This document shows positions 32,611 through 41,077 of a DNA stretch of 41,455 nucleotides, piece by piece (position 1 is the first letter of the stretch; each line of letters opens with the position of its first letter). A program made the translations under genes and the position numbers. Under the pieces are notes generated by a model. It was not told the DNA's origin. It ran no database searches and saw only the letters and a program-made list of their open reading frames with translations. Source of the stretch: a virus. Location of the stretch: positions 1-41,455 of IMG/VR virus record IMGVR_UViG_3300017527_000021. One strand, given 5' to 3'.

Positions 32611-32829
32611 ATGAAAGCACTTGACAAGATATACAGTGACTTAGGCGAACAAGAGTACAGCCTTATTGTTGAGTACAATGATGTTATGGCTCAGATTGAA
32701 GAACAAAAGATTCTGAACGATGGTAATTATGACTTGAATTTACTAGCCAACTCTGTAGCATTAGAGAAAGCAATTAGCCATGTGAAAGATGCTCAAAAAG
32801 AATTAAGAAAATTAGTTGACATAAAGTAA
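32611..32829 (+). CDS. Hypothetical 72-residue protein
   Basis: Starts at ATG 32611 behind CGGAG; an in-frame upstream ATG lies over the -10 element and is rejected. The sequence is acidic and helical (MKALDKIYSDLGEQEYSLIV at the start; NSVALEKAISHVKDAQKELR near the end), with a coiled-coil look. No family recognised. It has its own promoter, and its 3' end overlaps the -35 of the next promoter and one arm of the operator at 32813. Confidence 0.55.
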   Translation: MKALDKIYSDLGEQEYSLIVEYNDVMAQIEEQKILNDGNYDLNLLANSVALEKAISHVKDAQKELRKLVDIK

Positions 32830-32844
32830 TCATTCAACTATATT
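32813..32844 (+). promoter_or_regulatory. Promoter with operator-like inverted repeat, RNA1
   Basis: TTGACA (32816-32821), 17-bp spacer, TATATT (32839-32844). Overlapping both elements is an inverted repeat TAGTTGA (32813-32819) / TCAACTA (32834-32840) with 14 bases between arms; half-site centres are 21 bp apart, two helical turns. The same arrangement recurs at 33044. Predicted start near 32851, exactly at the first base of the RNA1 stem. Confidence 0.75.
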
Positions 32845-32849
32845 AAGAA

Positions 32850-33036
32850 CATGAACTGATGAGTAGGTAAGGTAATTATCGAGAGCAGTTCATTAGCAAG
32901 CCATCAGAGTACGGTGGTAAATCTTGAGGACGCACCCTCTCGTGCTTGCGAAACTTGTGTACAGGTAACTGTGACAGAGCACAGAACGTCCACAGAAAGC
33001 ACGTGGGTAGCGTTGGCGGGGAGACTGTACAGATTT
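32850..33036 (+). ncRNA. Structured non-coding RNA candidate 1
   Basis: No protein fits. Complementary arms: ATGAACTG (32851-32858) with CAGTTCAT (32886-32893); GCAAGC (32896-32901) with GCTTGC (32944-32949); TGTACAG (32958-32964) with CTGTACA (33025-33031), enclosing CTGTG/CACAG (32969-32984) and CCAC/GTGG (32990-33006). A dedicated promoter places the start at the first stem. Short frames in the region cross the stems on both strands, have no Shine-Dalgarno and no family resemblance. The region may reach about 185 nt, ending before the second promoter. I recognise no named RNA family. Confidence 0.6.
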
Positions 33037-33043
33037 AAAATAG

Positions 33044-33075
33044 TAGTTGACAGAAGAGAAACATTCAACTATTAT
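33044..33075 (+). promoter_or_regulatory. Promoter with identical operator-like inverted repeat, RNA2
   Basis: TTGACA (33047-33052), 17-bp spacer, TATTAT (33070-33075). Inverted repeat TAGTTGA (33044-33050) / TCAACTA (33065-33071) with the same 14-base spacing as at 32813, and shared CATTCAACTAT around the -10. Predicted start near 33082. Confidence 0.78.
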
Positions 33076-33081
33076 ACCATT

Positions 33082-33350
33082 GACGACTGGGAGAGTGGTG
33101 TCCGAAACATCCGACTTACTCCACCGAGGGTAAGCCTCCCAGACGCTTCGATTAATATAAGCTGTAGGGTAGCTCAGTGTGAACTTGTTGATGACGACTG
33201 CGACGGTAGTGAGGCAGGTTGCGTAGGGCATAGGTTAAGATGTGAGGGGTCATGAATCCTTACAATACTATCTGTGTCTGAGGCTTAGAGCACTATACGT
33301 GGAGTATGGAGGACACCCTTGAAAGGTCTCTACAGCTTATATTAAACGAC
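33082..33350 (+). ncRNA. Structured non-coding RNA candidate 2
   Basis: Two domains. Domain I: CTGGGAG (33087-33093) with CTCCCAG (33136-33142), enclosing GTGG (33095-33098) with CCAC (33121-33124). Domain II: a perfect 16-bp stem TTAATATAAGCTGTAG (33152-33167) with CTACAGCTTATATT-AA (33330-33345), enclosing 162 bases with several small hairpins (for instance GTGAGG/CCTTAC near 33242-33262 and ATAC/GTAT near 33295-33307). A dedicated promoter lies upstream and tRNA-Ile begins 11 bases after the closing stem. Large ornate RNAs (GOLLD, ROOL) are known beside phage tRNAs; whether this is one cannot be judged by eye. Confidence 0.65.
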
Positions 33351-33355
33351 TTTAG

Positions 33356-33468
33356 ACTGCATATAGCTCAAAGGTCTATAAGGGTGCAAACCTTATAGAA
33401 CTCGGCAGAGGTAGAGCATCCGATTGATAATCGGGAGACTGTAGGTTCGATTCCTACGTGCAGCACCA
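33356..33468 (+). tRNA. tRNA-Ile (GAT) with a hairpin insertion in the D-loop
   Basis: Acceptor ACTGCAT/GTGCAGC (A-C mismatch at the first pair, last pair T-G), D-stem GCTC (33366-33369) with GAGC (33414-33417), anticodon stem TCCGA/TCGGG with loop TTGATAA (anticodon GAT, 33426-33428), variable loop AGACT, T-arm GTAGG-TTCGATT-CCTAC, discriminator A and encoded CCA (33466-33468). The D-loop is 44 nt instead of 7-11 and contains a perfect 9-bp hairpin TCTATAAGG-GTGCAAA-CCTTATAGA (33375-33399). There are three bases between acceptor and D-stem. The 3' two-thirds are canonical; the insertion makes the total 113 nt. Confidence 0.75.
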
Positions 33469-38087: not shown

Positions 38088-38341
38088 TTGAAGCAGGTGA
38101 TAAAGTAAAGATTCTTGAGGTTGGTGATGGGGATAGCTTCAAAAATAGCCCTGACCTGATTGGTAAGACAGGTCATCTTGCAAGCATTGTTGGTCAGCAT
38201 GCAGATGGTTGGTGTACAGCTGCTGTTATTGTTGAAGGTGAGGTTACTATTTCAGATGGTGATGAAACCTATACAGCAGATTTTACAAGCCCATTCTTTT
38301 TTGTAGAAGTTAAACTGGAGGTGATTTATGAGAGCGTTTAA
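38084..38341 (+). CDS. Hypothetical beta-rich protein (SH3-like appearance)
   Basis: 85 residues from ATG 38084 (coupled to the preceding stop; AGGGGG Shine-Dalgarno at 38070-38075). The start IEAGDKVKILEVGDGDSFKN, followed by IGKTGHLASIVGQHADGWCT, resembles the G-D-x-V-x-I...G-x-x-G-x-V pattern of small beta-barrel (KOW/SH3-like) proteins. Function unknown. Overlaps the next gene by 14 bases. Confidence 0.5.
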   Translation: MIEAGDKVKILEVGDGDSFKNSPDLIGKTGHLASIVGQHADGWCTAAVIVEGEVTISDGDETYTADFTSPFFFVEVKLEVIYESV

Positions 38342-39176
38342 ACTGTCGTATGACCAAGATCACACACAGATGACAAGTATTGTTTTCTCTGGTGGTGAGA
38401 TTCATGTAGACCTAAGCTACCTACCGACAAAGGTTAGTGAGTATACACTTAAAGCACACCTACAATCTAGTGAAGACATTATGCACTTCTTCATGGTATG
38501 TGATGCACTTGGTCGTAAGTGGCCTGACGCTAAGTCTACAGTGTTCATCCCTTATATGCCTTATGCACGTCAAGACCGTATGTGTTCAGATGGTCAGCAC
38601 TTTGGCTTAGAGGTGTTCGCTAAGATGCTTAATGGTATTCCACAGCGCAACCTGATCACGTATGATCTTCACAGTGAAGTCTTACTTGACCTGTTAGATG
38701 AAAGCTTTATTGTAAATAATGTCACTCAACGTACAATCATTGGTCGCTCTGTTTTGGATGACTTGCTGAATGATACAGACATGTGGATTGTGTCTCCAGA
38801 TAAAGGTGCTAAAAAGAAAGCTATCAATGTTGCCAGTAAATATTGCCAGCGACCTATCTTTGGAGATAAGGTGCGTGACCCACAGACAGGCGATCTTACA
38901 GGTTTCACATCTAACTTTGAAGACTACAATGGTCGTGATTTACTTATCGTTGATGACATAATGGATAATGGCGGCACATTCCTTGGCTTGGCTGAAGAAT
39001 TGAGGGGTAAAGGTGCAGGAAAGATTAGTCTTTATGTTACCCATCTTATCGCTGAAAAAGGTGTGAAGCATTTTGAGGGGATTATAGACACAATATACAC
39101 AACAGACTCATTTAGGAGAGGTGGGCTAAAGCTACAGGTAGATGGGGATGTTAAGATTGTTACTATCAAGCTCTAA
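38328..39176 (+). CDS. Ribose-phosphate pyrophosphokinase-like enzyme (Prs family; possible ADPR-PP synthetase)
   Basis: 282 residues, start ATG 38328 behind GGAGGTG. Prs-type motifs in order: the flexible-loop PYMPYARQDRMCSDGQHFGL (residues ~77-96), a nucleotide-binding histidine in ITYDLHSEV (~109-117), VSPDKGAKKKA (~151-161) and the PRPP-loop LLIVDDIMDNGGTF (~206-219). In ordinary metabolism it makes PRPP from ribose-5-phosphate and ATP; in phage NARP1 the homologue (Adps) transfers pyrophosphate to ADP-ribose. The directly following NAMPT-like gene makes the latter plausible, but the sequence alone does not separate the two. Confidence 0.8.
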   Translation: MRAFKLSYDQDHTQMTSIVFSGGEIHVDLSYLPTKVSEYTLKAHLQSSEDIMHFFMVCDALGRKWPDAKSTVFIPYMPYARQDRMCSDGQHFGLEVFAKMLNGIPQRNLITYDLHSEVLLDLLDESFIVNNVTQRTIIGRSVLDDLLNDTDMWIVSPDKGAKKKAINVASKYCQRPIFGDKVRDPQTGDLTGFTSNFEDYNGRDLLIVDDIMDNGGTFLGLAEELRGKGAGKISLYVTHLIAEKGVKHFEGIIDTIYTTDSFRRGGLKLQVDGDVKIVTIKL

Positions 39177-39229
39177 CACATCCTTACTGAAGAGTTCGGT
39201 GTTGCCATTCATTAAGAGTGGCTCACCTG

Positions 39230-39251
39230 TTAGTTTAACCGATTTAACTAA
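39230..39251 (+). other. Inverted repeat in the Prs/NAMPT intergenic region
   Basis: TTAGTT (39230-39235) with AACTAA (39246-39251) around TAACCGATTT. The 143-base gap 39177-39319 contains no other recognisable element apart from the Shine-Dalgarno of the next gene. An operator or weak hairpin is possible. Confidence 0.3.
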
Positions 39252-39319
39252 GAGACTATAACTTGAAGGATTTCTTAAATCATATACAAAGAATTATTAA
39301 CAATAGAGGGGAAAATATT

Positions 39320-41077
39320 ATGGCTAAAGCAAGACCTGTGTTTGGAGAGAGAGAGATTATCTTAGCGCCAAACTTATTAGATTTCTACAAAACATGTCAT
39401 CACTTCTTATATAAGAGTGGTATCACAGAGGTCTGCACTAACATGACAGCTCGTTCTGGCAACCATACAAACATACCTAACGGTAAGACTTATATGGCAG
39501 GCGGAGCACAGTCTTTCGTTAACTCTATCTTGGTGATCGAATGGAACAAATTCTTCGATGCGCCTAAAGAGAAAGCTGTGTATGATTACAAGCGTATCAA
39601 TGGGCATGGTATTGGTGTTGAGTGTGACACATCTCACTTGGAAGCCTTACATGATCTCGGATATCTGCCACTTGAGGTACGTTCTTTAGAGGAAGGGACG
39701 GAGGTTGACTATGGTATTCCATTCATCACCGTACGATCAACCCACCCTGACTTCTTCTGGTTAGCTAACGCTATCGAGACTATTCAATCAAATCAGGTTT
39801 GGCCTATCCAAACATCACTGACTACTGCAACTGAGTATAAGCGTACAATCAAAGAGTTCGCTGATATTGATGGTACACCTGAATGGTTGCAAGCATTGTT
39901 AGGTCACGACTTCAGTATGCGTGGTATGATGGGTGGTAAGCTTGATAGTGGTGCTACACTGTCTGGTACTGGTCACTGTCTATCTGGTTTAGCTGGTTCA
40001 GATACATTGCCAGTAGGCTTTCAGTTAGAACGTGACTATGGTGCATCGTTAGACCCAGCAACTCCATTCACTACGATGGGTTCTGTGTTTGCTACAGAGC
40101 ATAGTGTACAGTGTTCATATAACAACAATGATCTGGAATACTTCAACACTTGTATTGATCGTGTTGGTGATGAAGCTATTCTTAGTCTAGTGTCTGATGG
40201 TTACGACTTCTGGGAATTGGTTACAGGTATCTTGCCACAGTTGAAAGATAAGATTATGGCGCGTGCTGGTAAGGTTGTTATCCGACCTGACAGTGGAGAC
40301 CCAGCTGATGTGTTATGTGGTATTCAAGTCGGCACTGTCAGTTATGATGGCGATGACTATGACATGTGGAGACAGTCTGTTAAAGATGACCTTCATAATT
40401 CTTTGTCAGAACAAACACCTCATGGTGAGGATGGTTATGCTATCAGTGGCTACTACAGCTTCAATGGTGATGTTTACTTATGTAATTATGCCCCTGATTG
40501 GAATCGTTATGATAAACAGTATTATTTCATAGAAGAGTACGGTGATCAGATGACCGAGGAAAAGGTTGAGCTTACAGCAATCCAAAAAGGTCTAGTAGAA
40601 GTGTTATATGACATGTTCGGTGGTGAAGAGGTTGGTGGATTCAAATTCCTACACGGAAGCATAGGTACAATCTATGGTGACTCTATTACTCTTGCACGTC
40701 AACGTGATATCTATGAGCGTCTACACGCTAAAGGTTTCGCAATCGCTAACGTAGTGCTTGGTATCGGTTCATTCACATACCAATACGTAACACGTGATAC
40801 ACATGGTTCGGCTGTTAAAGCTACACACATTGTGTTAGATGGTGTTGATACTCCGATCAGTAAAGAAGTTAAAGGTTGTGAGTTCAAGAAGTCTGCTAAA
40901 GGTTTCTTATGGGTAGGTCGAGGGCATGATGGCAAGTATGTGTTAGAAGATAATGTATCAAGAGAGCGATTTGAGCATGTCTCTAACGAGTTGTCAGTAA
41001 TCTGGAAAGATGGTGATTGGAAAAAGATCATTACTCTTGAAGAAGTACGAGCCAACGTTGCTAAAGCAATAGGCTAA
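39320..41077 (+). CDS. Nicotinamide phosphoribosyltransferase-like enzyme (NadV/NAMPT family; possible Namat)
   Basis: 585 residues from ATG 39320, chosen for GAGGGGA 8-15 bases upstream; the frame is open to a TTG at 39263 without such a site. NAMPT signatures: TARSGNHTNIPN in the N-terminal part, an LLGHDFSMRGMMGGKLDSG segment (residues ~195-213), SGLAGSDTLP (~221-231), FATEHSVQCSY (~257-267), VVIRPDSGDP (~323-332) and FLHGSIGTIYGDSITL, then ANVVLGIGSFTYQYVTRDTHG (~475-495, shown in part). It makes NMN from nicotinamide and PRPP, or NAD+ from nicotinamide and ADPR-PP in NARP1. Length slightly exceeds the ~490 residues typical of NAMPT because of insertions. Confidence 0.85.
   Translation: MAKARPVFGEREIILAPNLLDFYKTCHHFLYKSGITEVCTNMTARSGNHTNIPNGKTYMAGGAQSFVNSILVIEWNKFFDAPKEKAVYDYKRINGHGIGVECDTSHLEALHDLGYLPLEVRSLEEGTEVDYGIPFITVRSTHPDFFWLANAIETIQSNQVWPIQTSLTTATEYKRTIKEFADIDGTPEWLQALLGHDFSMRGMMGGKLDSGATLSGTGHCLSGLAGSDTLPVGFQLERDYGASLDPATPFTTMGSVFATEHSVQCSYNNNDLEYFNTCIDRVGDEAILSLVSDGYDFWELVTGILPQLKDKIMARAGKVVIRPDSGDPADVLCGIQVGTVSYDGDDYDMWRQSVKDDLHNSLSEQTPHGEDGYAISGYYSFNGDVYLCNYAPDWNRYDKQYYFIEEYGDQMTEEKVELTAIQKGLVEVLYDMFGGEEVGGFKFLHGSIGTIYGDSITLARQRDIYERLHAKGFAIANVVLGIGSFTYQYVTRDTHGSAVKATHIVLDGVDTPISKEVKGCEFKKSAKGFLWVGRGHDGKYVLEDNVSRERFEHVSNELSVIWKDGDWKKIITLEEVRANVAKAIG

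What the first reader, a model, noticed from the sequence alone, without database searches (positions are those of the whole stretch)
33082..33350. A large RNA closed by a 16-bp perfect stem, next to a tRNA
TTAATATAAGCTGTAG (33152-33167) and its exact reverse complement (33330-33345) enclose 162 bases rich in further small complementary arms, and a separate 7-bp stem precedes it. A perfect 16-bp stem across 160 bases in AT-leaning, non-coding DNA is very unlikely by chance. Large ornate RNAs such as GOLLD and ROOL are known beside phage tRNAs, so this could be a member of one of them or a new class.
Basis: partly seen in the sequence, partly recalled or inferred. Interest (0 to 1): 0.85.

Follow-up and report, generated by a model that had tools for sequence, protein, structure and literature searches.

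The report
Phage RNA built around tRNA core

Summary
The 16-bp stem (33152-33167/33330-33345) is the only inverted repeat of its size in the window, and it closes a real structured RNA. It is not GOLLD or ROOL. No Rfam 15 family matches it. Pattern, BLAST and covariance-model searches found homologues in unrelated phages: all 16 Menderavirus records hit, Aeromonas phages Akh-2 and TS3, a 200-kb phage, Pseudomonas-type prophages and a GOLLD-bearing tRNA cluster. Models built without the window find it at E about 1e-17. Across 20 members, 95.5% of base-pair cells are paired and 33 of 37 pairs show two-sided changes; sliding the partner by one column drops pairing to about 40%. The junction is that of tRNA: linkers 2/1/4-5/0; invariant U8, R9, A14, A21, R26; variable loop AGGUC; a 5-bp arm with the 7-nt loop CGYGGAG. 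A ~107-nt domain replaces the D loop, the acceptor is mostly 17-29 bp, and T loop and CCA are lost. A model trained only on prophage members ranks tRNA-Pro first among tRNAs in six of seven tRNA sets. phiAH14a carries a tRNA-like RNA with a 20-bp acceptor in the equivalent slot. Best reading: a free-standing tRNA(Pro)-like mimic or decoy. Structure is near certain; target and function are inferred.

The parts
33047..33075 (+). sigma-70-like promoter TTGACA-N17-TATTAT; predicted start about 33082
   Evidence: 11 of 12 consensus; consensus match only, similar numbers of weaker sites occur in shuffles
33087..33142 (+). leader stem-loop (7-bp closing stem CTGGGAG/CTCCCAG with two inner hairpins)
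   Evidence: z -1.3; no homologue found; may be incidental
33152..33345 (+). the RNA element as a whole (closing stem to closing stem)
   Evidence: R1 92.5 bits E 2.4e-17 (33170-33311), R2 77.3 bits E 3.1e-17 (33162-33335), window held out of both
33152..33169 (+). P1 5' arm (extended acceptor-like stem; inner 8 bp modelled)
   Evidence: pairs with 33328-33345; about 17-29 bp stems of different sequence in most members
33170..33171 (+). 2-nt linker UA = tRNA U8, R9
   Evidence: U 20/20, purine 20/20
33172..33175 (+). P2 5' arm GCUC (D-stem-like), followed by invariant A14 at 33176
   Evidence: 98.8% paired, all 4 pairs change on both sides across members; A14 20/20
33182..33220 (+). P3/P4 hairpin: AACUUGUU/GGCAGGUU, internal loop with UGAUGACG, ACUG-[CGACGG]-UAGU
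   Evidence: helices 3 and 4; loop sequence conserved in lytic-phage subtype
33224..33282 (+). P5 variable arm (rest of the D-loop insertion)
   Evidence: helix 5, 91.8% paired; sequence highly variable
33283..33291 (+). conserved GCUUA (last A = A21) and P2 3' arm GAGC
   Evidence: A21 20/20, though GCTTA was part of two search patterns
33293..33309 (+). P6, anticodon-arm-like: CUAUA-[CGUGGAG]-UAUGG (5 bp + 7-nt loop), preceded by R26 at 33292
   Evidence: loop CGYGGAG in 18 of 20 members
33310..33314 (+). AGGAC = variable-loop-like linker (family consensus AGGUC)
33315..33327 (+). P7, T-arm position: ACCC-UUGAA-AGGU (no T-loop motif)
   Evidence: helix 7; all 4 pairs covary across the family
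33328..33345 (+). P1 3' arm, directly abutting P7 (0-nt linker as in tRNA)
33356..33468 (+). downstream tRNA-Ile (GAT)-like gene with a hairpin inserted in its D loop; neighbour, not part of the element
   Evidence: Rfam tRNA 32.1 bits for 33404-33457; fold

Best explanation
A member of a phage-encoded RNA family not in Rfam. It is a tRNA-like RNA, most like tRNA-Pro, in which (i) the acceptor stem is extended, mostly to 17-29 bp, so the ends are sealed and there is no free CCA end, (ii) a ~107-nt structured domain (P3/P4 and P5) replaces the D loop, (iii) the anticodon-like loop keeps YGG (the UGG/CGG proline anticodons) but lacks U33, and (iv) the T arm is short with no T loop. It cannot be charged or decode. 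Most likely it acts in trans as a stable tRNA(Pro)-shaped decoy or competitive inhibitor of a host factor that handles tRNA (a tRNA-cleaving defence or toxin, a modification or processing enzyme, or a synthetase), helping the phage keep control of translation. Shown: the family, its secondary structure and its tRNA-like core. Inferred: transcription as a separate RNA, the decoy action and the target.
For: Held-out models detect the window at E 2.4e-17 and 3.1e-17, and each subtype model finds the other subtype. Covariation: 95.5% of cells paired, 33/37 pairs changed on both sides, covariation score 0.757 against at most 0.148 when slid and 0.231 when shuffled. G-U pair types point to RNA. tRNA core: U8, R9, A14, A21, R26 in 20/20, G10 in 19/20, linkers 2/1/4-5/0, commonest variable loop AGGUC. 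R2, trained with no tRNA, gives tRNAs as its best non-members, and tRNA-Pro ranks first in the window (33.0 bits against 4.8 for the next tRNA), L062 (both tRNA-Pro genes first and second), L074, L075, L076 and L078, and second in T4. Pseudomonas phage phiAH14a holds, between the same flanks, a tRNA-like RNA (T loop UUCGAAU) closed by a perfect 20-bp acceptor. L063 has a TTGACA-N16-TAGAAT promoter directly upstream and a GC hairpin plus T run visible downstream. One copy per genome. Precedent: YrlA combines an end-pairing stem with a tRNA-like domain and was proposed as a competitive inhibitor of an anticodon nuclease (PMC7790460, PMC8394870).
Against: No expression or binding data. The tRNA resemblance is in architecture and key residues only: Rfam's tRNA model does not score the element itself. 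The rankings use one model, and phage tRNA-Pro genes are related, so they are not independent. The residues conserved in P3/P4 and P5 have no explanation in a simple decoy. A defence target specific to tRNA-Pro is not known to me. Many members were found with patterns containing GCTTA and CGYRGAG, which inflates the apparent conservation of those two motifs. L013 and L062 have only about 8 bp of P1.
Confidence: 0.5

Rival explanations
1. A partner or processing/assembly element of tRNA-island RNAs such as GOLLD: the RNA helps build, load or mature phage tRNA/GOLLD particles or the tRNA-array transcript.
For: Most lytic-phage members lie in or beside tRNA genes; in L062 the element starts about 50 nt after a GOLLD with a tRNA in its linker.
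Against: Prophage members have no tRNA or GOLLD nearby, nor do L017 and L021; L063 has its own promoter-like site; most tRNA arrays examined lack the element.
Confidence: 0.15
2. A regulatory RNA that acts by base-pairing or protein titration unrelated to tRNA, the tRNA-like junction being only a stable scaffold inherited from a tRNA gene.
For: Stand-alone placement in the early region of prophages; conserved motifs (UGAUGACG, CGACGG, GGUUGCG, GCUUA) not needed for tRNA mimicry.
Against: The conserved residues include the tRNA tertiary-contact set; the loop of the anticodon-like arm is among the most constant parts.
Confidence: 0.2
3. A cis-acting structure in the mRNA/tRNA operon (transcript stabiliser, processing site or terminator-like barrier).
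For: In the window it lies between small ORFs and a tRNA and could be co-transcribed.
Against: Conserved internal domains, one copy per genome, different neighbours in each lineage.
Confidence: 0.1
4. A DNA-level inverted repeat or decaying tRNA pseudogene.
For: Long inverted repeats also occur at mobile-element ends; tRNA-like residues could be relics.
Against: Two-sided compensatory changes in all seven helices, with G-U pairs, over unrelated phages.
Confidence: 0.02

Closest known systems
Bacterial Y RNA YrlA (tRNA mimic with an end-pairing stem)
   Same: Small non-coding RNA, 5' and 3' ends pair in a long stem, tRNA-like domain, not a functional tRNA.
   Different: No match to any Rfam family in the window element (E up to 10); no TROVE/Rsr gene in ten carrier records; keeps the anticodon-like arm and lacks the T-loop motif; D loop replaced by ~107 nt.
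tRNA-Pro
   Same: Junction linkers, U8/R9/G10/A14/A21/R26, GCGC-type D stem in some members, AGGUC variable loop, YGG in the anticodon-like loop; best-scoring tRNA for model R2.
   Different: Extended acceptor, no CCA end, no U33, no T loop, ~107-nt D-loop insertion.
GOLLD (RF02032) and ROOL
   Same: Phage/prophage non-coding RNAs often beside tRNA islands.
   Different: No sequence or structure match; a quarter to half the size; coexists with GOLLD in L062.
T4 stable RNAs rnaC and rnaD
   Same: Small stable RNAs of unknown function in a phage tRNA cluster; rnaC carries a T-arm-like hairpin.
   Different: Not detected by R2 even without filters; different size and layout.
tmRNA
   Same: Larger stable RNA with a tRNA-like domain.
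   Different: No CCA end or tag reading frame seen; not found by ARAGORN or Rfam.

Membership tests
GOLLD (RF02032) | Match to the GOLLD covariance model | tested here: not met
   No hit in window at gathering or at E up to 10; a true GOLLD is found elsewhere by the same search
GOLLD (RF02032) | Length of 400-800+ nt with conserved 3' region | tested here: not met
   Element is 194 nt
ROOL | Match to the ROOL covariance model | tested here: not met
YrlA / Y RNA | Match to the Rfam models | tested here: not met
YrlA / Y RNA | Partner Rsr/Ro60 (TROVE) gene in the same element | tested here: not met
   0 of 10 carrier records, positive control rings; several records are fragments and a host-encoded Rsr is not excluded
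tRNA (RF00005), functional | 7-bp acceptor, CCA end, T-loop motif, U33 | tested here: not met
   Rfam tRNA model does not hit the element
tRNA-like architecture | Four-way junction with linkers 2/1/4-5/0 and U8, R9, A14, A21, R26 | tested here: met
   20 of 20 members for the residues
tRNA-like architecture | L-shaped tertiary fold | not testable with these tools
   needs chemical probing or cryo-EM
This family (models R1, R2) | Window detected by models trained without it | tested here: met
   E 2.4e-17 and 3.1e-17

The most novel reading that the evidence does not exclude
Phages of several unrelated lineages carry a dedicated tRNA(Pro)-shaped, uncharged RNA that counteracts a host tRNA-targeting defence or toxin by occupying its active site: an RNA inhibitor that works by tRNA mimicry, with the D-loop domain giving it affinity or specificity.
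Probability: 0.3. Interest if true: 0.95.

Novelty: new variant of a known kind. Interest (0 to 1): 0.84.

Why it matters
It adds a well-supported RNA family, absent from Rfam 15, to phage genomes, with members in cultured phages (Menderavirus, Aeromonas phages Akh-2 and TS3) and prophages, so it can be tested at once. The tRNA-Pro-like core gives a concrete lead on what one of the RNAs in phage tRNA islands might do, and suggests looking for tRNA mimicry among the others (T4 rnaC, phiAH14a). If it is an inhibitor, it would point to an unrecognised tRNA-centred conflict between phages and bacteria.

Tried and rejected
GOLLD/ROOL and every other Rfam family. Homologues of region 32830-33150: none found by blastn in phages, folds no better than chance piecewise. 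Most early DNA-pattern hits (L003-L012, L014-L016, L018-L020, L022-L036, L043-L046) were rejected by eye: mostly coding sequence with GATGACGAC..CGACGG (Asp-rich motifs) and no matching closing stem. Genome-contig scans found nothing genuine. No plasmid match. T4 rnaC/rnaD not members. The DNA-polymerase relatives (Shewanella phage 1/4, Vibrio phages vB_CoeS_P1 and helene 12B3, Klebsiella 05F01) lack the element within 9 kb of that gene, so it looks like an accessory of the window's lineage. Pseudomonas phages ventosus, UAVern and phiK7A1 share flanks with L063 but not the element. Bacterial genomes could not be searched by kinship because the window is a virus record.

Full report
Observation. 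The arms TTAATATAAGCTGTAG at 33152-33167 and 33330-33345 are exactly complementary. Scanning the whole window, this is the only inverted repeat with arms of 12 bp or more within 250 nt; simulated sequence gives 0.03 repeats of 14 bp or more per window. The enclosed RNA folds 5.2 standard deviations better than shuffles. No Rfam 15 family matches it at gathering score. At E up to 10 the only match inside it is a chance-level one (v-snoRNA-1, 18 bits against a gathering score of 75); the partial tRNA is just downstream.

Finding relatives. A distant blastn search of phage records gave one hit in the element itself, 58 nt at 83%, in Stenotrophomonas phage Bhz51, directly after tRNA-Gly in a tRNA cluster. 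That locus also has a perfect long stem around the match, with a different sequence (GAAAGTGCTGCTCTTTG...CAAAGAGCAGCACTTTC). Sixteen Menderavirus records carry it. Pattern scans of IMG/VR based on the shared core added L013, L017, L021, and a scan on the P6 end added a 200-kb phage, L042. A looser P6 pattern added about twenty loci, mostly Pseudomonas-type prophages (host inferred from matching Pseudomonas phage flanks), plus a tRNA-cluster contig that also carries GOLLD. A model search later found it in Aeromonas phage Akh-2, and blastn in its relative TS3.

One family. Two covariance models were built, R1 from six lytic-phage members and R2 from seven prophage members, neither containing the window. 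R1 finds the window at 92.5 bits (E 2.4e-17) and every prophage member; R2 finds the window at 77.3 bits (E 3.1e-17) and every lytic member. Coding-sequence pattern hits included as negatives are not hit. Over 20 distinct members the seven helices have 95.5% of cells paired, 33 of 37 pairs with changes on both sides, and a covariation score of 0.757; sliding the partner by one to three columns gives 36-43% and 0.09-0.15, and no shuffle reaches the observed values. That alignment is fitted to the R2 structure, which favours it, but the same pairs appear in MAFFT alignments of each subtype that were not structure-fitted. The closing stem is 17-29 bp in 18 members, with unrelated sequences between lineages; L013 and L062 keep only about 8 bp. 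Each record examined has one copy; L042 is missed by the filtered whole-record search although it scores.

Architecture. The order is P1, 2 nt, P2, a ~107-nt domain (P3/P4 and P5), P2', 1 nt, P6, 4-5 nt, P7, P1' with no linker. These are the linkers of a tRNA cloverleaf. In all 20 members the tRNA positions U8, R9, A14, A21 and R26 hold the tRNA-typical base, G10 in 19; the commonest linker before P7 is AGGUC, the usual variable loop of class I tRNAs (from general knowledge); P6 is a 5-bp stem with a 7-nt loop CGUGGAG or CGCGGAG in 18 of 20. Caution: GCTTA (which includes A21) and CGYRGAG were part of the pattern that found most prophage members; U8, R9, A14 and the variable loop were not, and the members found by other routes share them too.

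tRNA-Pro. R2 contains no tRNA, yet run without filters on tRNA-rich DNA its best non-member hits are tRNAs, aligned arm for arm. The top tRNA is tRNA-Pro in the window (33.0 bits, next 4.8), in L062 (both tRNA-Pro genes), in Bacillus phage BcoS-136, Aeromonas phage Akh-2 and Caulobacter phage CcrSC and in Klebsiella phage FZ41; in T4 it is second. The Menderavirus clusters L002 and L038 show no tRNA-Pro, and there tRNA-Ala and tRNA-Asp lead. The tRNA-Pro genes are related to one another, so these rankings are not independent tests. The anticodon-like loop carries UGG or CGG in 18 of 20 members, both proline anticodons, but has G where tRNA has U33.

An equivalent RNA. In Pseudomonas phage phiAH14a the locus with the same flanks as the prophage element holds a shorter RNA: D-arm-like and T-arm sequences (GGGUUCGAAUCCC) closed by a perfect 20-bp stem. 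A tRNA-like RNA with an over-long acceptor stem in the same slot supports tRNA-likeness as the selected property.

Expression. The window has a promoter-like TTGACA-N17-TATTAT ending at 33075, just before the leader hairpin. L063 has a promoter-like site directly before the element and a GC hairpin with a T run after it, as expected for its own small-RNA gene; the automated scan did not list that terminator. These are consensus matches, not measurements.

How it most likely works. The ends are sealed in a long duplex, there is no CCA, no T loop and no U33, so it cannot be a working tRNA; the core residues and the anticodon-like arm are kept. The simplest account is a stable mimic or decoy that binds a host tRNA-handling factor. 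Phages are known to answer tRNA-targeting defences with their own tRNAs (PMC11555353 abstract; PMC13096335), and YrlA, an RNA with similar overall logic, was suggested to inhibit an anticodon nuclease competitively (PMC7790460). The target here is unknown. The conserved P3/P4 loop and internal loop suggest the D-loop domain has a specific partner.

Place among known things. It works like a tRNA mimic of the YrlA sort but is not a YrlA member by Rfam, and none of ten carrier records has a Ro60-like gene. It is not GOLLD, ROOL, tmRNA or T4 rnaC/rnaD by the tests made. I did not find it described in the literature searched, which covers open-licence papers only.

Noticed in passing
window 33356-33468: tRNA-Ile (GAT)-like gene with a ~32-nt hairpin (TCTATAAGG/CCTTATAGA) inserted in the D loop and an A-C mismatch at the top of the acceptor; missed by ARAGORN.
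   Followed up: partly
window 32816-33045: A second promoter-like TTGACA-N17-TATATT (32816-32844) starts a ~200-nt gene-free stretch upstream of the element; no homologue and no significant fold found.
   Followed up: partly
L070 7910-8010 (Pseudomonas phage phiAH14a): Unannotated tRNA-like RNA closed by a perfect 20-bp stem, in the slot where related prophages carry the element.
   Followed up: partly
L071 2608-3030, with corresponding gaps in L072 and L073: Pseudomonas phages ventosus, UAVern and phiK7A1 have a 380-450-nt gene-free region; in ventosus it ends in the terminator-like hairpin that follows the element in L063. It holds a different sequence with no Rfam match.
   Followed up: no
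L042 405-560: A tRNA-like sequence with a long internal insertion follows the element in the 200-kb phage.
   Followed up: no
L062 9588-10275: GOLLD with a tRNA in its linker lies about 50 nt before the element, inside a 14-tRNA cluster.
   Followed up: yes
L077 2409-2547 (T4 rnaC): T4 stable RNA C carries a T-arm-like CCGGGTTCGAATCCCGG near its 3' end, so it may be tRNA-like too.
   Followed up: partly
L079 4300-5005 and L080 3677-4410: About 700-nt gene-free gaps in the window's DNA-polymerase relatives; no Rfam or R2 match; the one in Vibrio phage vB_CoeS_P1 is next to a tRNA-His guanylyltransferase gene.
   Followed up: partly
window 38328-41077: Adjacent ribose-phosphate pyrophosphokinase and nicotinamide/nicotinate phosphoribosyltransferase genes: a phage NAD-salvage pair.
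   Followed up: no
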